Shown here: positions 8,982-33,525 of the stretch, one piece after another
How positions within the stretch are numbered: position 1 is the stretch's first letter
How the letters are laid out: every line of letters begins with the position of its first letter
Source of the DNA: a virus
DNA length: 62,450 nt
Direction: 5' to 3' (one strand)
IMG/VR virus record: IMGVR_UViG_3300014720_000036
Span: 1-62,450 of that record
Notes under the pieces: model-generated
Told to the model about the DNA's origin: nothing
Seen by the model: the letters and a program-made list of their open reading frames with translations, nothing else
Databases searched by the model: none
Position numbers and translations under genes: made by a program

Positions 8982-11900
8982 TCAGCCTTTCTTCTCGGGG
9001 TTGTGACCCCAAACTTTGAGTGCTAGCAACTTGCGGGTCGGGCGACCCTTCTCGTCCCTCATGCCGCCCTTGGCTCCCTTCATGCGGGAGATGAAGTTGA
9101 CCTGCTTACCCGCCCACTTCCAATCGTTGGCGGTCCACTTCCCCATGGGGGTGTCGAGCATTCGGATGATCGCTCGGGCGGAGTCACGACCGCTAGTGAT
9201 CTTCTTGCCACCTGTGCCCGCCTTCCCTGCCTCCTTGCGTGAGAGACCCGCCTCCTCGCCCCCCTCGGAGTCAAGGAAGGATTGGATCTCCTTGCCCGAC
9301 ATGTTTACGAGTTTTTGCCACTCTTTGTAGAGGCTGCGCTTCTCGTCATCGATCTCCTTGCCGTCCTCTTCTTTGAGCCGTTCACGCTCTCCAGGAGTAT
9401 CACGCTTGTAGGTCTTGACGATCTCGTCGCTGCCGATCTCAAGGGGACCACGCTTCGTGAGGGCGGTCCATTGCATCACGCTGTGGATCTTGTCGGCTTC
9501 CATGAGCCATTCGTCGGTCACGACGAGCGACTCGGACTTGCCGTGCATCTTCCATGCCGTGGCGTAGAAGACATCCTTCCACTTCTTACCGTACCGCTTC
9601 TTGAACTCCGCCTTGACCTTCTCCTTCTTGGAGAATCGTCGGGCGGGTCCGCTAGGAGGACTCACCTCCATGAGCAGGTAGTCGAAGTCCTCGTTGATGT
9701 CCGTGGGTTCGTCCGTGCCCATTTCGGCTGCACGGACATCCTTCAGGTGATCGATGTATGCCCTGACGAGTTCGGTCGCCTCGGACATCTCACGCTCACG
9801 ACAGCGATCCTCGTAGGCGATGGCGAGACGCAACTTGGATGCCGTCCCTTCCTGCGACTCATCGATTGACCACAGCCTTTCCAAAGCCTCGTCATGTTCG
9901 TACCCACTCTTGAGTGCCTTGACCTTGCCCTTCTTCTCCAACTTCTTGAAGAGGGCGGTGTACTTGGACGGCTTCGTCTTCATTTTCTTCTCCCTTGGGT
10001 TCACGAACTCCCATGTCTTGGGATCGTCATCGGACATCCTCTTGCGCTTGGCGAGTTCCCTGCTTCGGGTCTTCGCCTCGCCCTTGGAGAGCCCTGAGAC
10101 ATACTTCTTCGGGAGACCTGATGCCTTGTCCTCGGGAGACTTCTTCGTCTTTCCTGACTTGGTCTTGAACTTCTTGCCCTTGGTGGCATCCGCTTCCGTA
10201 ATAGGGGTGCCATCGGTCTCGTATTCCATGCCGAGGACGGGCATGAATGAGTAGAGGATTTTCCCCACGGGGGTCAGATCCACCTCTACTTGGGCGAGGA
10301 TCTTACCAAGCAACTTGACGAGAAACCTCCCCAACAGGGTCTTCTGCATGAAGGTGTTGAGGGTTGTGGTCGCACCCATGACCTTGTATGCGTGGACGAT
10401 GATCTCTGCCTTGGTGGACTCAAGTTCACGCTTGAACTGCTCGGGGGTGAGGACCTTCTTCTTGTTGGCGAGGGTGAGGATCTTGGTTGCCACCACGGGA
10501 CTCTTGATGATGTCCTTGGCGGCATCGGTGACCTCCTTGGCGGACATCTCCGTGATCTCCTCTTCCTCCTCTTCCTCCTCGCCGCTGCGCTTCTTGGAAG
10601 GGTCGGGCTGCGGGTAGATGCCCTCTGCGGGATCCACGATGCTGCCCGTCTGACCGAGGAACCGAAGACCGATGAGTACCTTGCTCGACATGTGGCTGCG
10701 GTCGCCGAGCGAGAACTTGATGTTTGGGTAGTGCTTGCCGTGGAAGTCGATGTCCATCAGGACCACAAGACGCTTCTTCTCGCCGACCCCCGACTTGACT
10801 CTGATGCGGCTAATGATCTTTTTTGTCACCTTCTTGCCGTTTGCCAAGGTGAAGGTGACAGTACTGTCACCATTGTTCTTGATGTCCGTGGCGTGGATCA
10901 TGTTGTAGCCGCTGTTACCCGTGTCGATCTTGGCTCGGTATTCGACACCATCGACCTTCACAGGCTCACGGACGGCGAGGTTGGAAAACAGTTTCCAATT
11001 CGCCTTGACGAGGATGTGGTTGAGGAAATCCTCGACCAACTCCTCGCCCTTGACATTGTCCTTGCCCTTGCCGTCCTCGTAGTAGCGGTAGTAGATGTTG
11101 CCGCTGCCAGGACTTGCGTTCATCTCAATGATGTACGGCTTGCCCTCGTTGATGACATGGTCGATGCCGACATAGTAGCACTTGCTCACCCGAGCGGCTT
11201 GCTCGACCAACTTCACCTCGTCATCGGAGAGTTGGTGCGACCCACCCTTCGATCCTCGGGCAATGTTCGTGCGGAAGTCCTTCGGTGCCTTGTCCCTCTT
11301 GGCGCATGCGAAGATCTTTCCGTTGAGGACGATGCTGCGGACATCGTTCTTGAAGTCGGGGAGGAACTCCTGAATGATGACCTCGGCACCGAACTTCCAT
11401 AGGGTCTGAAGCACCGACTTCAGGCTCTCCATGCTTTCGATCTTGGAGACACCGATCCCCTCTGCGCCCGTGAGGGTCTTGCAGATGACGGGGAACTTGC
11501 CGCCGATCTCCTTCACGGCTGCTTCGATGTTCGCCTCGCTCGACACATATGCGGTCTTCGGGTGCGGAAGTCCGTGCTTCTTGAGGGCGATGGCGGTCTC
11601 CAACTTGTTTGCGCAGAGTTCCATGCCCCCCTTCTCGTTGACCATGAACACGCCGTTGTTCTGAAGGATGGTCAGGATGGCGACACCGACCTCGCTGTTC
11701 ATCACGCCGCCACGGACAATTGCAATGGTGTCGCTCGGGATGATCGTTGCATCCTTGCCCTCACCATCGTAGTTCTTGATGACGATCTTCTTCGACACCA
11801 CGCTCGACAGGTCGATCTGCGCCTTCTTCGTCTTGACCGCATAGAAGGGGATCCTGCGCTTCTTGCAGATCGCCTCCATCTTCTCAATGGTGTCCGAGAG

Positions 11901-12584
11901 ATCCTTGTCCGAGGAAGTGAGGGCGAGGATCGTGACCTTGTCGCCGTTCTCCCGAGCCTCCTCGACATACTCCTCGTTGAGACCGAGTCCCTTGCGGACA
12001 TCGTTGTAGAGCCGCTCCTTGAGCATTCCGTCATCGGTGGGGATCAGAGCGGAGAACGCCGAGAAGTCGCCCCTGAAAGCAGCCTCACGGGCATCCGTAG
12101 ATTCGACGGTTGCGAGTCCCGTGCCATCCTTGGAGCGGTGTTCGCCCGCCACCTTGACTTGGAACGACTCAAATGCGTATGACCTGCCCTTGGGATCCTT
12201 GGGTGCTGCGGTGCCCTTGTAGTTGCCGATGCGCTCGTAGTCGGACTTCTGATCGTCGCCCGTGACGAGGACGAGGTTCTTGTAACCCTTCTCGCAGAGG
12301 TAGAGGACAGCATCGAACGGATTCGTCGCCTCGGTCGAGATGTTTGCCTCGGGGAAGAGAGCCTTCATGTACTCGACCTTCTTGTCGGTCGAGAGGGGGT
12401 TCTTCTTGGCATCCTGCGCACGGGAAACGAACACGAAGTGGTCGGCACCGAGTGCCTTCGCCTCCGTCATCACGGTGTCGATGACCAACCCGTGACCCGT
12501 TGTCGGAGGGTTCATCCTGCCGAAGGAGAACACGGCGGTGTCCTTGGGACCCTGTTCGTTGATGTGCATGGAGAAGCCCTTCAC
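8982..12584 (-). CDS. Adenylyltransferase - RimK ATP-grasp - RimB protease-like fusion with basic modules
   Basis: 1200 residues, GTG start with AGGAAGG upstream and 4-bp overlap with the next gene. Residues 1-10 are MKGFSMHINE. Residues 17-190 are a nucleotidyltransferase (GRMNPPTTGHG at 22-32). Residues about 205-530 are an ATP-grasp ligase of the RimK type (CKTLTGAEGIGVSK 368-381, IIEMNASPG 485-493). Residues 535-655 resemble the RimK-associated aspartyl protease RimB, with AKIDTGNSG at 551-559. After an acidic stretch come several small Lys/Arg-rich modules, separated by EITE(677-680), ITEA(796-799), LLMEV(970-974) and LMEA(1027-1030), possible prohead-protease sites. RimK glutamylates ribosomal protein S6 in bacteria; the substrate here is unknown. 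Confidence 0.8.
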   Translation of the reverse strand: MKGFSMHINEQGPKDTAVFSFGRMNPPTTGHGLVIDTVMTEAKALGADHFVFVSRAQDAKKNPLSTDKKVEYMKALFPEANISTEATNPFDAVLYLCEKGYKNLVLVTGDDQKSDYERIGNYKGTAAPKDPKGRSYAFESFQVKVAGEHRSKDGTGLATVESTDAREAAFRGDFSAFSALIPTDDGMLKERLYNDVRKGLGLNEEYVEEARENGDKVTILALTSSDKDLSDTIEKMEAICKKRRIPFYAVKTKKAQIDLSSVVSKKIVIKNYDGEGKDATIIPSDTIAIVRGGVMNSEVGVAILTILQNNGVFMVNEKGGMELCANKLETAIALKKHGLPHPKTAYVSSEANIEAAVKEIGGKFPVICKTLTGAEGIGVSKIESMESLKSVLQTLWKFGAEVIIQEFLPDFKNDVRSIVLNGKIFACAKRDKAPKDFRTNIARGSKGGSHQLSDDEVKLVEQAARVSKCYYVGIDHVINEGKPYIIEMNASPGSGNIYYRYYEDGKGKDNVKGEELVEDFLNHILVKANWKLFSNLAVREPVKVDGVEYRAKIDTGNSGYNMIHATDIKNNGDSTVTFTLANGKKVTKKIISRIRVKSGVGEKKRLVVLMDIDFHGKHYPNIKFSLGDRSHMSSKVLIGLRFLGQTGSIVDPAEGIYPQPDPSKKRSGEEEEEEEEITEMSAKEVTDAAKDIIKSPVVATKILTLANKKKVLTPEQFKRELESTKAEIIVHAYKVMGATTTLNTFMQKTLLGRFLVKLLGKILAQVEVDLTPVGKILYSFMPVLGMEYETDGTPITEADATKGKKFKTKSGKTKKSPEDKASGLPKKYVSGLSKGEAKTRSRELAKRKRMSDDDPKTWEFVNPREKKMKTKPSKYTALFKKLEKKGKVKALKSGYEHDEALERLWSIDESQEGTASKLRLAIAYEDRCREREMSEATELVRAYIDHLKDVRAAEMGTDEPTDINEDFDYLLMEVSPPSGPARRFSKKEKVKAEFKKRYGKKWKDVFYATAWKMHGKSESLVVTDEWLMEADKIHSVMQWTALTKRGPLEIGSDEIVKTYKRDTPGERERLKEEDGKEIDDEKRSLYKEWQKLVNMSGKEIQSFLDSEGGEEAGLSRKEAGKAGTGGKKITSGRDSARAIIRMLDTPMGKWTANDWKWAGKQVNFISRMKGAKGGMRDEKGRPTRKLLALKVWGHNPEKKG

Positions 12585-24220: not shown

Positions 24221-24753
24221 GGCTTCTTCTTGTCCTCCTCGTCATCTTCCTCAATGTCAACGAACTCGACCACGGAGTTGCCCGAGTAGTCCTTGGCGTA
24301 GTCCTTGGCGAGGGAGTAGACCTTGGGGTTCGTCTCCTTCACATAGCGGATGAAGTTCAAGCAGAAGTCGTTGATCGCCTGACGGTAGAGCGTCCGCTCC
24401 CTGTCCGTCATGTCATCCTCGTCGGGATAGGCGTTCGGGTCCTCGTCCCCGTAGTCACGCTCTGCGACGGATGAATCCATGTCCTCCCCGCACTCCATCA
24501 CGAACTCACGAAGGGAGCATGGGAAAATCATGCAGGGCGTTCCCTCGCCGAGGTGCGCCCCGAGGATATTGAACTCAATGTACTCGGCGGCATCGTCCTC
24601 ATCGGCACATCCGCCATCCATGACGATCTCCATCACCTTGTCGTAGTCGTAGACGGCGATAGGGATGGTCTGACCGTACTTGCGGAGTCCACCGAGGAAC
24701 GCCTTGTCGAATCCGTCGAGGAGGAGGGTCTTTGGTTCCTTGTCACTCGGCAT
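24217..24753 (-). CDS. Acidic hypothetical protein
   Basis: 178 residues from MPSDKEPKTLLLDGF; an upstream in-frame ATG exists but lies inside the uvsX 3' part. It has a globular first half (CMIFPCSLREFVMECGED) and an acidic C-terminus ending DIEEDDEEDKKKP. No known domain. It overlaps the uvsX C-terminal part by 11 bp, so it may be co-expressed with the recombination genes. Confidence 0.65.
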   Translation of the reverse strand: MPSDKEPKTLLLDGFDKAFLGGLRKYGQTIPIAVYDYDKVMEIVMDGGCADEDDAAEYIEFNILGAHLGEGTPCMIFPCSLREFVMECGEDMDSSVAERDYGDEDPNAYPDEDDMTDRERTLYRQAINDFCLNFIRYVKETNPKVYSLAKDYAKDYSGNSVVEFVDIEEDDEEDKKKP

Positions 24754-25276
24754 CTTCCCCCGCTTCCTGTTGACCGTACTTGAACTCTTTGGCTGCGGCT
24801 GCATCCAACGCCTTGAGGACATCCGCCGTGAACCACTTCTCGGGATCCTTGTTGACCCTCGACTCAAAGTCAGACCTGCCATCGGGGAACTGGATCTTGT
24901 TCGACACCTTCTTGAGGATGCCGTGACCGATCCCGAGGTCGATCAGACCGTAGTAGCGGTCGAGACCGCTGTCGTAGTTGAGCAGGACATCGATGGAGCG
25001 GTTCTCCTTCGTCAGTCGGCTCTTCTGGGTCTTGCAATGGATGATGTTGCCCACGACCTCGTCATCGACCTTGTGCTTCTTCTTGCTGAGGTAGACGATG
25101 GTGGTGGCGGCGTACTTGAGACCGCTGCCGCCGCCCATCTCTTTGGTCGGGACATATGAGTTGTGGGAGATCAAGCCGTTCCCGAGGATGTAGTGGTGGT
25201 CACCCTCGACCGTGAAGTCGTAGACCTCCACAGGGGTTGCGGTCGGGGTCTTGCGGACGATTTTCAGGGTCTTCAT
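24743..25276 (-). CDS. uvsX: UvsX C-terminal half with split-intein C-part
   Basis: 177 residues from the ATG at 25276 (a TTG two codons earlier is possible). Residues 1-39 are the C-terminal part of a split intein: VEVYDFTVEGDHHYILGNGL ends with SHN, followed by Ser as the +1 residue. The remaining 138 residues continue UvsX (SYVPTKEMGGGSGLKY onwards). After protein splicing with the product of 25909-26796 a complete UvsX of about 344 residues would form. The junction lies in the NHTYD/GGGSG region of the recombinase core. UvsX is the T4 RecA-like strand-exchange protein. Confidence 0.93.
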   Translation of the reverse strand: MKTLKIVRKTPTATPVEVYDFTVEGDHHYILGNGLISHNSYVPTKEMGGGSGLKYAATTIVYLSKKKHKVDDEVVGNIIHCKTQKSRLTKENRSIDVLLNYDSGLDRYYGLIDLGIGHGILKKVSNKIQFPDGRSDFESRVNKDPEKWFTADVLKALDAAAAKEFKYGQQEAGEDAE

Positions 25277-25308
25277 GCTCAATACTCCATAACCATATAT
25301 ATGGACTG

Positions 25309-25941
25309 ATGGGAAGGGTCACTCACAAACATCACATCGTGCCAAGACATGCAGGGGGATCGGACTCCGAGGACAACATCATCGAACTTACCGTGGAGGA
25401 ACATGCCGAAGCCCACAGACTTCTGTACGAAAAGAACGGTGATCCACGAGACTTCGTTGCTTGGAAGATGTTGAGCGGCAAGACCGAGGAAGCGGAGATC
25501 GCAAGGATGGAATTGTCGAAGCAAGGCTTCGTGAAGTTCCTTGCCTCGGATCGAAAGGGCGAGTGGCAGCGCAAAATATCTCGCAGCCTCACGGGCAGGA
25601 GTCCATCCCAAGAAAGCAATGACAAGAGATCGGAATCCTTGCGAAAGGCGTATGCCGAGGGAAGGATGTCTTGTTGGTTCAGCACGGCAGACAAGGAATT
25701 CTTCAGGGGAAACTACGACCCAATTAGGTTAGCGGAGGGCAGACGGGTATCTTCCCGATGGAGAGACTCGGTCACTTCGGACGAATACCGAATGAAACGG
25801 TGCATCAAGAATGCCAAGTCACGGAAAGTGATCGTCAATGACATCGAATATCCGAGCATCCGCAATGCCGCAAAATCGCTAGGCATCCCATACAGTCGAT
25901 TGAGATCGCTACTCGACGGCAAGGATTTCCTCACCCTCTGA
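25309..25941 (+). CDS. HNH homing endonuclease between the halves of uvsX
   Basis: 210 residues, the only clear plus-strand gene in the window. N-terminal HNH motif: THKHHIVPRHAGGSDSED then NIIELTVEEHAEAHRL. C-terminal region SRKVIVNDIEYPSIRNAAKS is a NUMOD1-like DNA-binding helix-turn-helix typical of homing endonucleases. The start at 25309 (MGRVTHKH) is chosen because upstream sequence belongs to the minus-strand gene. Its 3' end overlaps the intein N-part by 33 bp, convergent. It presumably cuts intein-less uvsX alleles so the element can spread. Confidence 0.9.
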   Translation: MGRVTHKHHIVPRHAGGSDSEDNIIELTVEEHAEAHRLLYEKNGDPRDFVAWKMLSGKTEEAEIARMELSKQGFVKFLASDRKGEWQRKISRSLTGRSPSQESNDKRSESLRKAYAEGRMSCWFSTADKEFFRGNYDPIRLAEGRRVSSRWRDSVTSDEYRMKRCIKNAKSRKVIVNDIEYPSIRNAAKSLGIPYSRLRSLLDGKDFLTL

Positions 25942-26796
25942 GATTTCCGAGATCGGCTTCCACTCCCCGTCACGACACATGAACTTGTGGTTCGGTGTGG
26001 CATGAAACACCGATCCGTCACTCAACTCGACTTCCACGGTGGAATCTGATTCGTAACGGAAGAGTTCCGTGACCTTGGACGATCCTGCCATCGTCCTAAC
26101 CTCATCACCGACAACGATATCGGTGATGGGGACCACGGAACCGTTAGCGAGAGTAACGGACGCATGAGAAGATAGACAACCCACGACATCGTAAGTGTGG
26201 TTGGTCACGATCAGGGGCATGTTGTACTTGCCCAACTTCAGGGTGACCGTGCGGAAGACGGACTTGATGACCTGACTGCGGGTCATGTCCCTGACCTCCT
26301 TGCCCTCGGCGGAGTCGTTCATCTCCTTGGAGGTCGAGAGCATCCCGAGGCTGTCGAGGACGATCATGGTCGCCCTTTGCTCGGACTTCTCCAACTTGCC
26401 GTAGTTGTCGATGATCTGAATGACCTGATGACGGAACTGCTCGACCGTGGCGATGGGGAACACCGCAACACGGTTCTTGTCGAGCCCACGGCTGACGATC
26501 ATCTCGCTCGTCACCGCCTGTTCGCTGTCGAAGTACAGGATCACCCCCTCGGGGTTGTCCTTGAGGAACTGCGCTGCGATTCCGAGGGCGAAGTATGTCT
26601 TGCCCGTGGCGGACTCACCTGCGATGCCGAGGATCTTGTTGTTCGGGATGCCGCCGTTGAGGGAGCCCGAGACGAGTGCATTGAAGGCGTAGGAGCCCGT
26701 GTCGATGAAGCCCGAGACATCGGCTTCAAGACCGTCGTTGGCGATGGCTGCGTACTCGTTGCCGCTGCTCTTGACGAGAGACTTCAGGAAGTTCAT
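25909..26796 (-). CDS. uvsX: UvsX N-terminal half with split-intein N-part
   Basis: 295 residues. Residues 1-206 are the UvsX N-terminus with Walker A GESATGKTYF (60-69) and MIVLDSLGML, ending NHTYDVVG. Residues 207-295 are an intein N-part: first residue Cys, then LSSHASVTLANGSVVPITD (block A) and SVFHATPNHKFMC with the TxxH motif (block B), and a stop right after the block-B region. The C-part is at 24743. Between the halves lies an opposite-strand endonuclease gene. The 5' region has CTAAATC but no TAAATA. Confidence 0.93.
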   Translation of the reverse strand: MNFLKSLVKSSGNEYAAIANDGLEADVSGFIDTGSYAFNALVSGSLNGGIPNNKILGIAGESATGKTYFALGIAAQFLKDNPEGVILYFDSEQAVTSEMIVSRGLDKNRVAVFPIATVEQFRHQVIQIIDNYGKLEKSEQRATMIVLDSLGMLSTSKEMNDSAEGKEVRDMTRSQVIKSVFRTVTLKLGKYNMPLIVTNHTYDVVGCLSSHASVTLANGSVVPITDIVVGDEVRTMAGSSKVTELFRYESDSTVEVELSDGSVFHATPNHKFMCRDGEWKPISEISEGEEILAVE

Positions 26797-26826: not shown

Positions 26827-27576
26827 TCAATCGTCCGTATCGGGTGGAGCCTCGCAGAAACCGTCGAAGGTCTCGTATGAGTAGCCCGAGTCCGTGATCG
26901 CTCCAAGCACGGTGTCCAACTCATCGGGGGTCACATGCGCCCGTGCGTGGGTACCCGTGTGCGCAGGTGCGCCCACGGGTCGTATATCGTGGAAGATGAT
27001 GACGGGGCTCACCCCCTCTTCGACCCCTGCCCTGATCTTTTCAACCACCCTGAGGAGATCTCCCCCACGAATCTTGGATTCGGTCGGAACTCCCTGTGTG
27101 TCCATCGTGGATTGCAGGGGAATCGTCCTTCCGCCCGAAAGCATCGTTCCTGAGTTGGCCGAGCGGACGAAGCAGAACAGACGCTCCACCTCGGAGAACA
27201 GGGCATCATCGAACTTGGTGTGTGGGAATGCGAAATGGGTCGGATCGAATCCCGCCTCGACCATCTCCTCCATGGCGGGGATCACCTCGTCATCGATGTA
27301 CTTGTCGATCCCGTATCTCTTGCTGTATGCAAGGGCATCACGGTGCTTCTTTCCATGGCAACCTATGACATGACCATCCGAGCGGAGGTCGTGGAGCATG
27401 TCGATCTCTTCGTCGCCGAGGAGGAAAAACGAGTCCACATAGAACACAGCCTTCGCTCTGTGATTCTTCAGGATCGCCCTCGCACCGTGCCAATGGGAGA
27501 CCGAGTGGTCATCGAAGCACAGATGGACATGCGGATGGCGCACATCCTTGTCGAGGAACCTGCCGATGGGCTGCAT
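26827..27576 (-). CDS. Polysaccharide deacetylase (NodB family)
   Basis: 249 residues. The NodB motifs are visible: VHLCFDDH (catalytic Asp pair), GCHGKKHRDA (metal His), FAFPHTKFDD and VIIFHDIRP (last catalytic His). These enzymes remove N- or O-acetyl groups from peptidoglycan or capsule. No signal peptide. A linker near the C-terminus (GAPAHTGTHARAHVTPDE) is encoded by the dispersed GC-rich repeat. A TAAATA box starts 5 nt before the ATG. Role could be host-wall or glycan modification. Confidence 0.85.
   Translation of the reverse strand: MQPIGRFLDKDVRHPHVHLCFDDHSVSHWHGARAILKNHRAKAVFYVDSFFLLGDEEIDMLHDLRSDGHVIGCHGKKHRDALAYSKRYGIDKYIDDEVIPAMEEMVEAGFDPTHFAFPHTKFDDALFSEVERLFCFVRSANSGTMLSGGRTIPLQSTMDTQGVPTESKIRGGDLLRVVEKIRAGVEEGVSPVIIFHDIRPVGAPAHTGTHARAHVTPDELDTVLGAITDSGYSYETFDGFCEAPPDTDD
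26937..26980. repeat. Dispersed GTGCG/CCCGTGCG repeat, copy in deacetylase
   Basis: Palindrome-rich GC tract (CCCGTGCGTGGGTACCCG, GTGCGCAGGTGCGCCCAC) read in frame as a His/Thr/Ala linker. Same family as 4644, 13875, 45673, 52150 and 61036. Confidence 0.65.
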
Positions 27577-27594: not shown

Positions 27595-30129
27595 TCAGGC
27601 GAACAGGGTGTCGAGGCTAGCCTCGTCCTCGACCTTCCAGCCGACGATGTCGAGCAGTTTCTTGAGGGGCTCAAGGAAAGCCTTGTCGAACTGCATCTCC
27701 CTGTCGATGTAGCGATCCAAGCCGAACTCTTCGGGAAGCACGGTCACGAACGAGATGACATGCTCACGGATCGGGTTCGGCTCCTTGAGATAGCAGAACT
27801 TGATCTTGTCCCCCTCCCTGATGAGGGGGTACGACTTCGTGAGTTTCTTCGTCTTGACGAGATGGTTGTATATGAGTCCACCCTTGACGGCGATGGGTGT
27901 GGACTTCTTGTAGATCGACGCTGCGTCTGCATACTCGTCAAGGTTGTTGCACCCACGGGGGAACGAGATCTGCTGCACCGAGAGCCCCATGAACTCGTCG
28001 TGGAATCCATCCACGAATGACCGAAGGGCACCCTCGTCAGATGTGAGGATCAGACTGATCGCCTGATGGAGGCTGCTGCGAACGACCTGCGGAGTCGATG
28101 ACCGCACGACCTCAAGACCCGTCACCTTGATGTCGGGTTCGTCCATGTAGACATCGTCCTCGCCCATGTGTACGGCGAGGCAGTACCTCTTCTTCGCAGC
28201 CCACAGTCCACGCATTGCGATGTTCTCACGCTTCATGCTCATGCGGTTCGCATATGCGTTCATGCCGACCGAGAGTTCTTCGTACCACCTTGAAATCCTT
28301 GGGAGGATGATCTCGTTGCAAGACCTATTGAGGAACTGCACCGTCTCCTTGGTGGGTTTCTCACCGAGGACCTTGGAGACCAATGGACCGAGGTGCAGGT
28401 ACACCGAGTCCGTGTCGGAGGCGATGACATAGTCGTGACCTTCCGTGGCGCAGGTCTTGTTGAGGAAGCGGTTCAACTTCTGTTCGATCCACTTGATCGA
28501 CAACTTGCCCGACCATGTGATCGCCTCGGCGATGCGGAGGTCGTAGTATCGGAAGTACTGGTTGCCCATGGCACCGAATGCCGAGTTCAACTGCACCTTG
28601 CGGACGAGTTGGAAGTTGTGGTACTTCGATACCTCCTTCTTTTTCGCCCCTACCTCCTCGGGGGAAGCCTTGTCCGAGTTCTTTTTCAGCCAACCCTTGG
28701 CTTCGACCGAGAGCCTCTTGTATTCCTTACGCTGCTTGTACATCGTGTCCATGAGTTCGGGGAGGAACCCATGGATGTCCCTGCGGTACATGGTGCCGTT
28801 ACCCGCCACGGAGAGATTGCGCTCCCGTGCGGAGGCAAGGGCGGGGGCAAACTTCTCGGGATCGGCGAGAAGGGTGTCCGCAGTCATGTCGGGGATCCTC
28901 TCGTCGGCGATGGTCTCGGGTGAGAGGTTGTACTGCATGATGAGGTGCGGGTACAGACTGTCGAGGTCGAACGAGGCGACCCACTCATAGGGGCTCGGCT
29001 TCGGCTCCTTCACATAGGCACCCGCAAACTGCTCACGCTTCTCGACCGATGGCTTCGGAGGAATGGCGATCCTCTTGGTCCGCAGGTAGTGGTAGATGAT
29101 GCTGTCCCACATGCGCACCTGCGAGAAGACATCGTCAAGGTTCGTCCGTGCGCTGTAGGCGAGTGCCTGAGCGAGTTCGATCAGCCGCAACTTGTCCTCA
29201 AGTTGGAGGACGAGGCGGGTGTCCTTGATGTTGTACTCCATGAACCGTTGGAAGTCCTGCTTGTACAGGTTGGAGAGGGTACCGATATCGGAGTAGTCGA
29301 TCTTGCCCTCGCCGAGTTCGATCATGGCGATGTGCTGCAACTTGTACGATTCACGGGTGACGAAGGTGAACTTCTTGTACAGGTCGTAGTAGTCAAGTAC
29401 CGAGATCCCCGCAAGGTCGTAGACCTGATTGTCTCTGTCCATCACGACAACCTTGCGGCTGCGGATCTCGCCCCATGGGGATAGCCTCTTGACCGCCTTG
29501 GGACCGAGGATTCGGCTGATCCTGCCGTGGAGATAGGGGATGTCGTACAGTTGGGCGTTCCACCCCGTGACGATGTCACAGTCGAGTTCCTCCCAAATGT
29601 CGAGGAACCTGTGCAGGAGACTCGCCTCGTCTGTGAACGAGTGGCACACGGCACCCTCGACGGAAAACTCCCCGAGCCCGAGGGCGTGTACCTCGTTTCC
29701 TTGGATCATCGTGATGGCATTGACACGCTCTCGGGGGTCATCGACCAAAGCGAACCCATCCTCGCTCTCGACCTCAATGTCGATGGAAAGGACACGGATG
29801 AAGGCGGGATCATACGGGATCTCGCCGTCGCTTCCGTACCTGTCAGCGATGAACTGATACTCGGGGTCGATGTCGCCATAGACACCGAAGCCGCCTACCC
29901 CATCGTACTGACCGACGAACTGCCTCGCCTCGTACATGGTGTCGAAGTCGATGGGATCGACCATCCTGCCGTCGATGGTTCGCCACGATGTCCCCTTCGG
30001 CTTGCTCGTCGTGACGAACAGGGTCGGTCGGTAGGTGAGGGATTCGTGGAGTCGGCGACCCTTCTCGTCGTAGCCCCTGTGGAGGATGCGACTGCCCTTG
30101 GTGCTGACGGCGGTGTAAAAGGGCTTCAT
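27595..30129 (-). CDS. 43: DNA polymerase, family B, T4 gp43-like
   Basis: 844 residues from MKPFYTAVSTKG at 30129; a longer in-frame upstream extension overlaps the methyltransferase gene and is not used. Exonuclease motifs: SIDIEVESEDG (Exo I), TGWNAQLYDIPYL (Exo II), EYNIKDTRLV (Exo III). Polymerase motifs: FDLDSLYPHLIMQYN (A), LNSAFGAMGN (B), ASDTDSVYL (C). Motif A has SLYPH where SLYPS is usual. A complete replicative polymerase with proofreading, expected to run with the clamp genes at 35380-38147. Starts with a 4-bp overlap of the upstream gene. Confidence 0.95.
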   Translation of the reverse strand: MKPFYTAVSTKGSRILHRGYDEKGRRLHESLTYRPTLFVTTSKPKGTSWRTIDGRMVDPIDFDTMYEARQFVGQYDGVGGFGVYGDIDPEYQFIADRYGSDGEIPYDPAFIRVLSIDIEVESEDGFALVDDPRERVNAITMIQGNEVHALGLGEFSVEGAVCHSFTDEASLLHRFLDIWEELDCDIVTGWNAQLYDIPYLHGRISRILGPKAVKRLSPWGEIRSRKVVVMDRDNQVYDLAGISVLDYYDLYKKFTFVTRESYKLQHIAMIELGEGKIDYSDIGTLSNLYKQDFQRFMEYNIKDTRLVLQLEDKLRLIELAQALAYSARTNLDDVFSQVRMWDSIIYHYLRTKRIAIPPKPSVEKREQFAGAYVKEPKPSPYEWVASFDLDSLYPHLIMQYNLSPETIADERIPDMTADTLLADPEKFAPALASARERNLSVAGNGTMYRRDIHGFLPELMDTMYKQRKEYKRLSVEAKGWLKKNSDKASPEEVGAKKKEVSKYHNFQLVRKVQLNSAFGAMGNQYFRYYDLRIAEAITWSGKLSIKWIEQKLNRFLNKTCATEGHDYVIASDTDSVYLHLGPLVSKVLGEKPTKETVQFLNRSCNEIILPRISRWYEELSVGMNAYANRMSMKRENIAMRGLWAAKKRYCLAVHMGEDDVYMDEPDIKVTGLEVVRSSTPQVVRSSLHQAISLILTSDEGALRSFVDGFHDEFMGLSVQQISFPRGCNNLDEYADAASIYKKSTPIAVKGGLIYNHLVKTKKLTKSYPLIREGDKIKFCYLKEPNPIREHVISFVTVLPEEFGLDRYIDREMQFDKAFLEPLKKLLDIVGWKVEDEASLDTLFA

Positions 30130-31304
30130 GCGAATAGATCGGTGAGTGGGATCGGGCACTCCTTCGTGATCCTGTCGGTTGCGATCTTGATGTATTCGGG
30201 GTTCAGTTCGGTTCCGACGAAGTTCCTGCCGTGCTTGAGGGACACGACACAGGTGGTTCCCGATCCCGTGAAGGGGTCGAGGACGATGCCACCTTCGGGA
30301 CATCCCGCTAGGACGCAAGGTTCGATGAGATCGGGAGGGAAGGTGGCGAAGTGCGCTCCCTTGAACGGCTTCGTGGTCACCGTCCACACCGAACGCTTGT
30401 TGCGAGTGCCATCGCTTTCATTCATAAGACCACGCAGCCCCCTGTTGTCACCAGCAATGTTATCTGCGTTCTTGTTGTTCTCTGCTCGTCCGCTTCCTTT
30501 CGTGTGGTATCTGTTGTGGTGATCCGAATATGTCGCCTTCTCCTTGATCGCTTCATTGTCGTAGTAGTACCTCGGGTTCTTCGTCAGGAGGAAGATGTAT
30601 TCGTGTGCCTTGGTGCAGCGGTCTTCCACGCTTTCGGGCATGGGATTGGGCTTGTGCCAGATGATGTCCTGACGGAGATACCAACCATCAGCCTGTAGTG
30701 CAAAGGCGACACGCCACGGGATGCCGATCAAGTCCTTCGTCTTCAATCCCACCTGATCCCTGCGGTTGGCGGGGACGAAGTCGGTCGGCATGCTGCGATA
30801 GTTTCCGTTCGCCACGGTCTGCGGCGGAGGGGCGCAGTTCTTCGCCGACATGTACGAGTCGCCGAGGTTCAGCCACACCGTGCCATCGTCACGGAGTACC
30901 CTGCGGACGGAACGGAAGACCTCGACCATCTTGGAGACATACCCCTCTACCGTGTCTTCCTGACCGATCTGCGAGTCCGTGCGCTTGGCTCCGCACTTTT
31001 TGCACAGGTGTCGGTGCTGTATGCCCTTGCCGATCTGCTCGTCATGTACCCGTGTGCGTGTGCTGCCGTCCATACGCTCACCCACGGCTATCATGGACTT
31101 CTTCTGCCTCATGCGTTCTTCCATAGCAGTCTCATCAATGTGATCGCAGTTGGAGTCACCTCCCTCCCATGTTCCCGTTCCGTAGTCACGGAGTCCGAAA
31201 TACGGAGGAGATGTGATGCAAGTGTGGACGCAGCCATCGGGCAGAGTCCTCATTCCTTCGATACAGTCGCCTAAGATGATGTTGTAGCGGTGGTCTTTGG
31301 TCAT
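30126..31304 (-). CDS. DNA methyltransferase (TSPPY type)
   Basis: 392 residues from MTKDHRYNIILGDCIEGM. Catalytic TSPPYFGLRDYG (motif IV) and VLDPFTGSGTTCVVS (motif I), order as in beta-class DNA methyltransferases; TSPPY is commoner among N4-cytosine than N6-adenine enzymes. Between them lies a variable target-recognition region. First of three methyltransferase genes in a row, each overlapping its neighbour by 4 bp. No restriction endonuclease partner in the window, so self-protection or evasion is more likely than restriction. Confidence 0.85.
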   Translation of the reverse strand: MTKDHRYNIILGDCIEGMRTLPDGCVHTCITSPPYFGLRDYGTGTWEGGDSNCDHIDETAMEERMRQKKSMIAVGERMDGSTRTRVHDEQIGKGIQHRHLCKKCGAKRTDSQIGQEDTVEGYVSKMVEVFRSVRRVLRDDGTVWLNLGDSYMSAKNCAPPPQTVANGNYRSMPTDFVPANRRDQVGLKTKDLIGIPWRVAFALQADGWYLRQDIIWHKPNPMPESVEDRCTKAHEYIFLLTKNPRYYYDNEAIKEKATYSDHHNRYHTKGSGRAENNKNADNIAGDNRGLRGLMNESDGTRNKRSVWTVTTKPFKGAHFATFPPDLIEPCVLAGCPEGGIVLDPFTGSGTTCVVSLKHGRNFVGTELNPEYIKIATDRITKECPIPLTDLFA

Positions 31305-32047
31305 TGCATGAGTCCGTGCAGACCCATGCACCTCTCCGCACGATCCTTGGCGATGAGGACGGCATTCGGATTGCTGTCCACGCCGACCACATTCCTGCCG
31401 AGGCGCAACGCCGCCTCAACGGTCGTGCCCGAGCCACACATGGGGTCTAGGACTAGATCGCCCCTATCCGTGTACGCTTTCATCAACCTCTCAAGGAGTT
31501 CAAGAGGTTTCTGTGTTGGGTAGCCGTTCCTCTCCTTCGCCGTGGTCGAGAGGATGCCGATCTGCCACCAATCATTCATAATGCGACCATCGGGATGGAA
31601 CCCCTCCCTGCCGCCGTAGTCCCTCGGGTACGGCTCACGGATCAGGTTGAAGCGGCAGAGGTCGGCATCCTTGGCATACACGAAAAGGTTGTCGTGCTTC
31701 CGTGAGAAGTGACGCTTCGATGCCCCGCCCGAGGCGTAGCACCAAATGATCTCGTTGCGGAAGTTCCTCGGGAGGAAGATGTTCTCAAGGGACATCCTCA
31801 CACGGTGGGAGGCATGCCAATCGACATGGACGCACAGGTTCCCGTGGGGCTTGAGGATTCGCCGTGCCTGTACGAAGGTCGAGATCAGCATCCCCATGTA
31901 GTGGTCGATGCTGTTCCACTTGTCGCTGAACTCCCCGAAGTCCCTGTCGCAGTAGTACGGGGGGTCGAGGTAGATGAAGTCGTACTTGTCGGAAGGCTCA
32001 CCGACCATGAAGTCGATGGCATCGGAGTTGAAGACCTCGTAGTTCAC
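31301..32047 (-). CDS. DNA methyltransferase (DPPY, type III Mod-like)
   Basis: 248 residues. FIYLDPPYYCDRDFGEFSDK (motif IV, DPPY) and GDLVLDPMCGSGTTVEAALR (motif I). The order and YPTQKPLELLERLMKAYT segment match beta-class N6-adenine methyltransferases. Overlaps both neighbours by 4 bp. Target sequence not deducible. Confidence 0.88.
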   Translation of the reverse strand: MNYEVFNSDAIDFMVGEPSDKYDFIYLDPPYYCDRDFGEFSDKWNSIDHYMGMLISTFVQARRILKPHGNLCVHVDWHASHRVRMSLENIFLPRNFRNEIIWCYASGGASKRHFSRKHDNLFVYAKDADLCRFNLIREPYPRDYGGREGFHPDGRIMNDWWQIGILSTTAKERNGYPTQKPLELLERLMKAYTDRGDLVLDPMCGSGTTVEAALRLGRNVVGVDSNPNAVLIAKDRAERCMGLHGLMQ

Positions 32048-33525
32048 TCAAAGAGTCCCTTCAGGTCGTTGTTCACCATGCTCGACGCAGCGTGGTCGAT
32101 GCGGTGTTTGGCGATCTCCGCATACTCGGGGTTCATTTCGATCCCCACGAATCGGAAGCCTTCAAGCATCGCCGCCTTCCCTGTCGATCCGCTGCCCATG
32201 AACGGGTCGAGGACGATCCCGTTTGGTTGAGTCACTAGACGGCAGAGATAGCGCATAAGGGCGGTGGGCTTGACGGTTGGGTGGTAGTTACGGGGCGAAA
32301 TAACGCGGTTCAGCCCGATGTCTTGTCCCTTGTCGTATCCCTCTCCGTTCAACTGTGCGCCGTTTGACATCCCAGACTTGCGCTCCTCCAACCCCTCGCA
32401 CCCCTCGTCCCGATCCGCCTTGCTCGCCTTGGCGCAGTAGAAGAAGCGGGCGGCGGAGCCTCTGTCGCCGTAGCCTATGTCGCCCTGTGGACTCCCCGCT
32501 GTGCCGAAATGAGAGACTGTTTGGTTGCCACGAACAGCCACGCCAGCCTTGACGCTTGGAAACAGCCCCACCACCTCGTCGCTTCCGTCGTGGATGAGGT
32601 TGGCGGGGAAGCGACCGACCTCGCTGTGTTGGTTCGCTTTGGTCGAATCGTAGTTGTCACCCAAACCTGTTTGGGAAGGTCTGCCGTTCGCACCGCATTT
32701 ATAGTCCCCGTTCAACTCCACCCTGCAACCATCCACATTGATCGCCCCCGTCCCATGCCGCAATACATTCTTCGCAACCGTGCCACACAGCGGCTTGCGG
32801 GCGACGATGATCGGTTCCCATGCGGGCTTCAGGGCTGTTCCCCAACCTTGCCATTGCTTTGCCGCTTCGGTGGCAGGAGCGGTGATGTCCACGACTCTGC
32901 TTGACGAAACGGAGTTGGGGCGTTTTGCAAAGTCATCGCCGCCGCTACGAGCGTGCTTCACATGACCAAGTTTTTCCCCGATGGCTTCATACATATCCTC
33001 CGCCCAATCAGGAACCTTGCCAAATTTCTCACAGAGCATGACGAACTTATCTTCTGGCAGGGTTTGCGGACACGGCGTATTTTCACCGAGGTAGTGGTCG
33101 ATTTGGCGTGTCGTGACACCACACGCAGAAGCAAGAGCCTCCCTAGTGCCAAGCGATTTCAGCCACGGGCGGATCACTTCGTTGCTGGCTCGTCGCTTGT
33201 CAATCGCCTTGCTCACATCATGGCTCTTGGGGAACCCCGATCCGTAGACCCACATGATGCAGTCCCGAATCTCCCATCCTGCATCCTCAATGGCACAGGC
33301 AAGGCGGTGGTAAGTGCGGGTTCCTCCGAAAGCGAGAAGATGCGCACCTGGCTTGGCGACACGGATGGCTTCGATCCAAAAGTCCTTCGCAGGGATTCCA
33401 TGATCCCATTCCTTCCCCATGAACTCAAGTCCATAGGGAGGATCGGTCACGATGGAGTCGATGGAGTCGGGGTCGAGTTCCCGCATCTTGTCGAGGCAGT
33501 TTCCGATGAGGATTTCGTAGTTCAC
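32044..33525 (-). CDS. DNA methyltransferase with inserted domain
   Basis: 493 residues, about 200 longer than its neighbour. TDPPYGLEFMGKEWDHG (motif IV) and VLDPFMGSGSTGKAAML (motif I). Residues about 105-200 hold an insertion between the catalytic motifs that includes LASACGVTTRQIDHYL, which reads like a helix-turn-helix and may be the target-recognition region. A C-terminal RDYHP-like segment (PRNYHPTVKPTALMRYLCRL) is typical. Third of the tandem set. Confidence 0.85.
   Translation of the reverse strand: MNYEILIGNCLDKMRELDPDSIDSIVTDPPYGLEFMGKEWDHGIPAKDFWIEAIRVAKPGAHLLAFGGTRTYHRLACAIEDAGWEIRDCIMWVYGSGFPKSHDVSKAIDKRRASNEVIRPWLKSLGTREALASACGVTTRQIDHYLGENTPCPQTLPEDKFVMLCEKFGKVPDWAEDMYEAIGEKLGHVKHARSGGDDFAKRPNSVSSSRVVDITAPATEAAKQWQGWGTALKPAWEPIIVARKPLCGTVAKNVLRHGTGAINVDGCRVELNGDYKCGANGRPSQTGLGDNYDSTKANQHSEVGRFPANLIHDGSDEVVGLFPSVKAGVAVRGNQTVSHFGTAGSPQGDIGYGDRGSAARFFYCAKASKADRDEGCEGLEERKSGMSNGAQLNGEGYDKGQDIGLNRVISPRNYHPTVKPTALMRYLCRLVTQPNGIVLDPFMGSGSTGKAAMLEGFRFVGIEMNPEYAEIAKHRIDHAASSMVNNDLKGLFE

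What the first reader, a model, noticed from the sequence alone, without database searches (positions are those of the whole stretch)
24743..26796. uvsX broken into two genes by a split intein, with an HNH endonuclease on the opposite strand between the halves
Seen: N-part 25909-26796 ends with an 89-residue intein N-region starting at Cys after NHTYDVVG; C-part 24743-25276 begins with a 39-residue intein C-region ending SHN before Ser. Between them, on the plus strand, is an HNH/NUMOD endonuclease (25309-25941) whose 3' end overlaps the intein N-part by 33 bp. Known: such 'fractured gene' arrangements were described for a few phage genes (helicase, IMPDH, NrdA/J); uvsX copies seem rare. Inferred: the two products trans-splice into one UvsX of about 344 residues, and the endonuclease supports homing.
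Basis: partly seen in the sequence, partly recalled or inferred. Interest (0 to 1): 0.95.

Follow-up and report, generated by a model that had tools for sequence, protein, structure and literature searches.

The report
Phage recombinase gene split by intein
A phage's DNA-recombination gene (uvsX) is broken into two genes whose proteins are very probably joined again by a split intein, while a selfish DNA-cutting gene sits in the gap on the other strand; close relatives of that cutter also occur outside any intein beside unbroken uvsX genes, which offers a way to test how such selfish genes move into inteins.

Summary
Confirmed, and it is not an isolated case. uvsX is split at residue 206/207 into an N-part (25909-26796, -) and a C-part (24743-25276, -). 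They carry an 89-aa IntN and a 39-aa IntC with all splicing residues intact, and a 210-aa HNH endonuclease lies between them on the other strand (25309-25941, +), overlapping IntN by 33 bp. Intein-free homologues (81% identical) join the halves exactly there. 24 further IMG/VR contigs carry the same element at the same site. 18 compared copies all keep Cys1, TxxH, His-Asn and Ser+1. Element and uvsX histories conflict strongly, so the element moves. New observation: every full-length close relative of this HNH found is tied to uvsX. Four contigs (two lineages) carry it free-standing beside an intact uvsX whose insertion site is altered, suggesting that the HNH cuts uvsX at the intein site (collaborative homing). 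The 'fractured gene' kind is known (Dassa 2009), and fractured uvsX at another site 11 codons away already sits unremarked in isolate genomes (Yersinia TG1, Vibrio EniLVp02, Proteus PM2). So: a new member of a known kind, with an unusually informative comparative set. Splicing and cleavage are inferred, not measured.

The parts
25909..26796 (-). uvsX N-part: UvsX residues 1-206 (26179-26796) + IntN 89 aa (25912-26178) + stop
   Evidence: Cys1 and block B TPNH present
25912..26178 (-). IntN (CLSSHASVTLANG...TPNHKFM...ILAVE)
   Evidence: Pfam Intein_splicing and Vint hits; 60-67% identical to the nearest site-a IntN sequences
25309..25941 (+). HNH homing endonuclease, 210 aa, antisense to uvsX; 3' end overlaps IntN by 33 bp
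   Evidence: HHI..P.H.GG....N...H...H invariant in 13 aligned relatives
24743..25276 (-). uvsX C-part: IntC 39 aa (25160-25276) + UvsX residues 207-344 (24746-25159) + stop
   Evidence: ends HHYILGNGLISHN|S
25160..25276 (-). IntC (MKTLKIVRKTPTATPVEVYDFTVEGDHHYILGNGLISHN)
   Evidence: Pfam Intein_splicing 124-155 of 155; 79% identical to IntC of L093
25277..25308 (.). 32-bp divergent intergenic region: GGAG Shine-Dalgarno for the C-part (25285-25288, -) and a 12-bp palindrome CCATATATATGG (25293-25304)
   Evidence: relatives L098/L101/L102 have TATAAATATTTATA (a T4-type late motif on both strands) at this place

Best explanation
This is a mobile 'fractured gene' element. Steps: (1) uvsX is made as two polypeptides, UvsX(1-206)-IntN and IntC-UvsX(207-344), the second from its own ribosome-binding site [sequence shown; expression inferred]. 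(2) IntN and IntC associate and splice in trans through Cys1, block-B His, terminal Asn and Ser+1, giving a 344-aa UvsX with a scarless joint at the edge of the L2 DNA-binding loop [inferred from complete conservation of the chemistry]. (3) The antisense HNH endonuclease cuts intein-free uvsX at or near this joint, and recombination repair copies IntN-HNH-IntC in [target inferred]. (4) The HNH belongs to a uvsX-dedicated clade that also lives free-standing beside intact uvsX with an altered site. The fractured locus therefore probably arose by collaborative homing of a uvsX-targeting HNH and an endonuclease-free uvsX intein, or the free form is an escapee from it [direction undecided].
For: Exact empty sites in close homologues. 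24 further contigs with the same element, all with the HNH antisense; 3' ends overlapped in 12 of 13 measured loci. Cys1, TxxH, HHY...HN and Ser+1 in 18 of 18; HNH residues invariant in 13 of 13. dN/dS of HNH and intein about 0.1-0.25 in unsaturated pairs. Mobility: the UvsX tree needs 12 changes for site-a presence (at least 6 on starred branches), with the window nested among intein-free L002-L004 (100/96). L101/L102: extein dS 2.3 but IntN almost identical. L095/L103: C-extein dS 0.11 but IntN and HNH dS above 3. HNH clade wholly uvsX-associated: 24 contigs in the split intein, 4 free-standing. In a sample drawn with peptides away from the site, only the two HNH-linked uvsX lineages read NHVY[AS]SMG-MFPTTELSGGNALKY (one codon fewer, no +1 nucleophile); the 74 others that could be read keep NHTY and EMGGG.GLKYA.
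Against: No splicing or cleavage assay exists here. The altered site may count as one evolutionary event (two sister lineages), and part of the motif (NHVYQTMGMFPT) also occurs in L131, which has a site-b intein and was not tied to this HNH; L278 is also one codon short without the HNH. Amino-acid divergence at the site is the deepest trough in that UvsX, but neighbouring blocks also vary. The free-standing HNHs are nested among site-a HNHs (sister to six, 99/96), which fits escape as well as ancestry. Patchy presence could partly be repeated loss.
Confidence: 0.82

Rival explanations
1. The two halves do not splice but assemble non-covalently into active UvsX, as for the endonuclease-split NrdA of phage Aeh1.
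For: The precedent of a gene in pieces that works without splicing (Friedrich 2007, cited in PMC3653736). The insertion lies in a loop.
Against: Full Hint halves with every catalytic residue kept in 18 copies under purifying selection; the element is inserted exactly before a Ser, while the nearest intein-free relatives have Ala there.
Confidence: 0.05
2. The split intein splices, but the HNH is a passenger or targets another place (for example the neighbouring polymerase gene or an intergenic site), so the element is not mobilised by it.
For: Free-standing phage homing endonucleases often cut at a distance from their own gene (PMC2988022). The target site was not tested.
Against: The HNH clade is found only with uvsX, at this one site, and the uvsX site is altered where the HNH is free-standing. 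Element and extein histories are decoupled.
Confidence: 0.13
3. Old vertical inheritance with many losses; little recent mobility.
For: Counts of change on a tree cannot tell gain from loss. Two intein subtypes (CLS and CAL) broadly follow the phage groups.
Against: L101/L102 share almost identical IntN in exteins with saturated dS; L095/L103 have near-identical C-exteins but highly diverged elements.
Confidence: 0.05
4. Assembly artefact or decaying pseudogene.
For: The window is an uncultured IMG/VR record.
Against: The same architecture in 24 other contigs from many samples; open frames; dN/dS well below 1.
Confidence: 0.01

Closest known systems
'Fractured genes' with split inteins and a free-standing endonuclease gene between the halves (Dassa et al. 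2009; paper not held, known from citations and memory; gp41-1, NrdJ-1, IMPDH-1 split inteins)
   Same: An essential replication or repair enzyme broken at the canonical Hint split point (IntN about 90, IntC about 39 aa), with an endonuclease gene in the gap.
   Different: Host gene uvsX at the L2-loop site a; HNH on the opposite strand with a 3' overlap; a close free-standing twin of the HNH beside intact uvsX. I could not check whether uvsX was among the eight gene types of that paper.
Fractured uvsX of Yersinia phage TG1, Vibrio phage EniLVp02, Proteus phage PM2 and Prevotella Lak-B megaphages (found here, not flagged as inteins in the records)
   Same: uvsX split by a split intein with endonuclease-like ORFs in between.
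   Different: Inserted at or near site b, 11 codons downstream (in T4-type phages GGG^TG); the endonucleases are of other families (annotated GIY-YIG or homing endonuclease, same strand); Thr+1 in the T4-type cases.
Split PolB intein with HNH gene in Pseudomonas jumbo phage MIJ3 (PMC6892783)
   Same: Split intein with an HNH gene (orf154) between two gene halves.
   Different: DNA polymerase B; a different intein (block A as printed: SVDGSTILNTSL) and a different HNH.
SegA of phage T4 (PMC2988022)
   Same: Free-standing homing endonuclease next to uvsX that cuts inside uvsX.
   Different: GIY-YIG family, no intein.
Collaborative homing (F-CphI/psbA intron; T3 and T7-like phages; cited in PMC10448857 and PMC2814812)
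   Same: A free-standing endonuclease whose target is the insertion site of a splicing element.
   Different: Described for group I introns; here the same HNH clade occurs both free-standing and inside a split intein.

Membership tests
Fractured gene (split intein + endonuclease in the gap) | Enzyme gene broken in two ORFs, each carrying one intein half | tested here: met
Fractured gene (split intein + endonuclease in the gap) | Separate endonuclease gene between the halves | tested here: met
   HNH 25309-25941(+)
Fractured gene (split intein + endonuclease in the gap) | Halves ligate by trans-splicing | not testable with these tools
   Only residue conservation shown
Split intein (Hint domain) | Block A nucleophile, block B TxxH, C-terminal His-Asn, C/S/T at +1 | tested here: met
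   C1, TPNH, SHN, S; 18/18 copies
UvsX recombinase | Both halves align to one UvsX, contiguous in homologues | tested here: met
   phrog_97 positions 21-227 and 228-332; intein-free homologues; intein-free relative L002 matches solved UvsX 9gbg, E 2e-124
HNH homing endonuclease | HNH catalytic residues | tested here: met
   HNH residues invariant in 13 relatives; phrog_655 homing endonuclease E 3e-19; fold search gave only weak HNH matches
HNH homing endonuclease | C-terminal NUMOD-type DNA-binding part | tested here: inconclusive
   I-HmuI NUMOD-like E 0.019 and NUMOD1 E 0.072, both below Pfam's cut-off
HNH homing endonuclease | Cleaves the empty allele near the insertion site | not testable with these tools
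   Indirect: altered site beside the free-standing HNH
Mobile (homing) element | Distribution and divergence decoupled from the host gene | tested here: met
Collaborative homing | Same endonuclease type occurs free-standing beside the gene whose splicing-element site it targets | tested here: inconclusive
   Association shown; target and direction not shown

The most novel reading that the evidence does not exclude
One HNH lineage dedicated to uvsX exists in two states, free-standing next to a uvsX with a changed L2-loop site, and captured antisense inside a split uvsX intein at that same site. This would make it a natural case, for inteins, of a site-specific endonuclease and an endonuclease-less intein joining (or parting) by collaborative homing, and would explain how fractured genes arise.
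Probability: 0.5. Interest if true: 0.75.

Novelty: new member of a known kind. Interest (0 to 1): 0.62.

Why it matters
How endonuclease genes come to sit inside inteins, and why some inteins are split, is an open question; [quoted passage not shown] Here one endonuclease clade is seen in both states around one gene, with the expected change at the presumed target, so the question becomes a simple cleavage assay. UvsX is itself a recombinase that homing uses in T4 (PMC2988022), so the element sits in a gene that drives its own copying. The element also gives a further family of naturally split inteins for protein ligation.

Tried and rejected
Apparent hits of IntN in cyanophage isolates (query 1-258) were alignment run-on into uninterrupted UvsX. 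Single-sequence scans with the window HNH or IntN found almost nothing, because exact peptides were needed; alignment and junction-pattern scans solved this. 29 junction-pattern hits in bacterial genomes read as an unrelated Bacteroidales protein, probably amylase-type, matching by chance. Klebsiella CPRSB 'recA_1-5' fragments look like sequencing frameshifts, not inteins. The first UvsX sample was biased toward the intact site motif, so it was redrawn with peptides away from the site. No sigma-70 promoter in the locus and no TATAAATA in the window. Foldseek on the HNH model gave no hit below E 0.001. Literature on uvsX inteins: no held paper has 'uvsX' with 'split intein'; Dassa 2009 is not held.

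Full report
Observation. The minus-strand gene 25909-26796 encodes UvsX residues 1-206 followed by an 89-residue IntN. The minus-strand gene 24743-25276 encodes a 39-residue IntC followed by UvsX residues 207-344. The plus-strand gene 25309-25941 encodes a 210-aa HNH protein. PHROG 97 (UvsX-like) matches the N-part over profile positions 21-227 and the C-part over 228-332, so the two halves abut. Intein, RecA and HNH profiles match as expected. The window is an IMG/VR virus record of 62,450 bases carrying a T4-type replication set: PolB near uvsX, a DnaB-like helicase, primase, sliding clamp, clamp loader and thymidylate synthase.

Junction. Intein-free UvsX relatives in IMG/VR (L002 81% identical overall, L003 76%, L004 75%, L006 68%) and in cyanophage isolates run straight from residue 206 to the first C-extein residue. 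The insertion lies in TYDVVG^SYVPTKEMGGG. By sequence the intein-free L002 UvsX is a close relative of a solved phage UvsX (9gbg) and related to RecA. By my own knowledge of RecA the insertion is in the L2 DNA-binding loop region, close to but not the same as a mycobacterial RecA intein site in that loop. The nearest intein-free relatives have Ala at +1; the window has Ser, as splicing requires.

A family, not a single case. A degenerate DNA pattern for the inteinated junction found 14 contigs, and HNH-alignment scans raised the total to 24 contigs besides the window, one of them cut at the contig end. In every one the HNH is antisense to uvsX. Its 3' end overlaps IntN by 33-105 nt in 12 of 13 measured loci; L096 is the exception. 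Cys1, TxxH, HHY...HN and Ser+1 are present in all 18 copies I compared. In most related loci an AGGA/GGAG-type ribosome-binding site precedes the C-part start. In L098, L101 and L102 the divergent region is a perfect TATAAATATTTATA palindrome, which puts a T4-type late motif on both strands; the window has CCATATATATGG there and no TATAAATA anywhere.

Selection and mobility. Pairwise dN is far below dS in unsaturated comparisons (HNH for example dN 0.066, dS 0.42; IntN 0.069, 0.62), so both parts are maintained. The UvsX tree, built without the site columns, needs 12 changes for presence of the element, at least 6 forced by well-supported branches. The window sits inside an intein-free group (100/96). 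L101 and L102 have UvsX N-exteins with dS 2.3 but almost identical IntN. L095 and L103 have C-exteins with dS 0.11 but IntN and HNH with dS above 3. The element therefore moves between uvsX genes.

The endonuclease. All full-length HNH relatives of at least about 46% identity in the scanned collection are uvsX-associated, as are the few more distant ones down to about 39% that lie in site-a inteins. In the tree they group apart from other free-standing HNH genes, though the branch that separates them is only moderately supported (97/52). Four contigs (two lineages: L147; L148/L161/L338) carry it outside any intein, head-to-head upstream of an uninterrupted uvsX. There the insertion site reads NHVY[AS]SMG-MFPTTELSGGNALKY, one codon shorter and without a +1 nucleophile. 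In a UvsX sample drawn with peptides away from the site, the 74 other loci that could be read keep the usual motif. The site is the deepest local drop in identity between these UvsX proteins and their nearest relatives (50% in the 20-residue block at the site, where those relatives are 79% identical to more distant UvsX; the script then stopped on an error after printing this table). The simplest reading is that this HNH cuts uvsX at the intein site and that the free-standing form is compatible only with a resistant allele. Limits: the two lineages are sisters; a similar partial motif occurs in L131, which carries a site-b intein; L278 is also one codon short without the HNH; and the free-standing HNHs are nested next to six intein-borne ones, so the direction of change is open.

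Comparison with the known. The arrangement belongs to the 'fractured genes' kind of Dassa et al. 2009, which I could not open; its existence is taken from citing papers and memory. A second uvsX site (b), 11 codons downstream, is also fractured in about 30 IMG/VR contigs, most with a same-strand HNH, and in the isolates Yersinia TG1, Vibrio EniLVp02 and Proteus PM2, and the Lak-B megaphages. The annotated records call the halves 'DNA repair protein' and 'recombinase' without noting an intein. No isolate in the phage collection was found to carry site a. L005 carries the site-a split intein and a contiguous site-b mini-intein in the same gene.

Verdict. Observation confirmed; trans-splicing very likely; homing likely; target at the intein site plausible and directly testable. 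New member of a known kind, with a comparative set that bears on how endonucleases enter inteins.

Noticed in passing
L153:2431-5952 (IMGVR_UViG_3300032320_002701): uvsX in three pieces: besides site a, a second intein in the Walker A motif (GESSTGK^TFF) split atypically, with a 27-aa IntN-like tail and a long IntC half, and small ORFs between. Two trans-splicing events would be needed.
   Followed up: partly
L005:4001-6440: One uvsX with a split intein at site a and a contiguous mini-intein 11 codons later (site b) in the C-half.
   Followed up: yes
L026:3986-7844 (IMGVR_UViG_3300021375_000017): uvsX split at site b with a same-strand HNH; the adjacent gp41-type helicase also ends in an intein-like tail (GCVHPETKVKIRFKKIS) with an HNH on the opposite strand.
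   Followed up: no
L106-L142: About 30 contigs have uvsX fractured at site b (KEMGGG^C), most with an HNH of the 'MF..NKYT..YF...HHIIPKS.GG' type on the same strand; none contiguous in this sample apart from L005 and its near-copy.
   Followed up: partly
L303, L304, L306, L307: Phages TG1, EniLVp02, PM2 and the Lak-B genomes carry fractured uvsX; the annotated records do not recognise it as an intein.
   Followed up: partly
L305:1403-3373: Salicola phage SCTP-2 gene 204, 'hypothetical protein', is a UvsX/RecA-like protein with two contiguous mini-inteins (P-loop and site b).
   Followed up: no
window 26827-27576: A polysaccharide-deacetylase gene (Pfam E 1e-11) sits between PolB and uvsX, an unusual neighbour in this replication cluster.
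   Followed up: no
window 30126-33525: Three adjacent ORFs in a row; one (32044-33525) matches DNA methyltransferase (phrog_67, E 8e-71), and the other two begin with similar methyltransferase-like motifs.
   Followed up: no
window 8982-12584: A 1200-aa protein with an N-terminal cytidyltransferase match and a weak S6-glutaminyl-transferase-like match further in.
   Followed up: no
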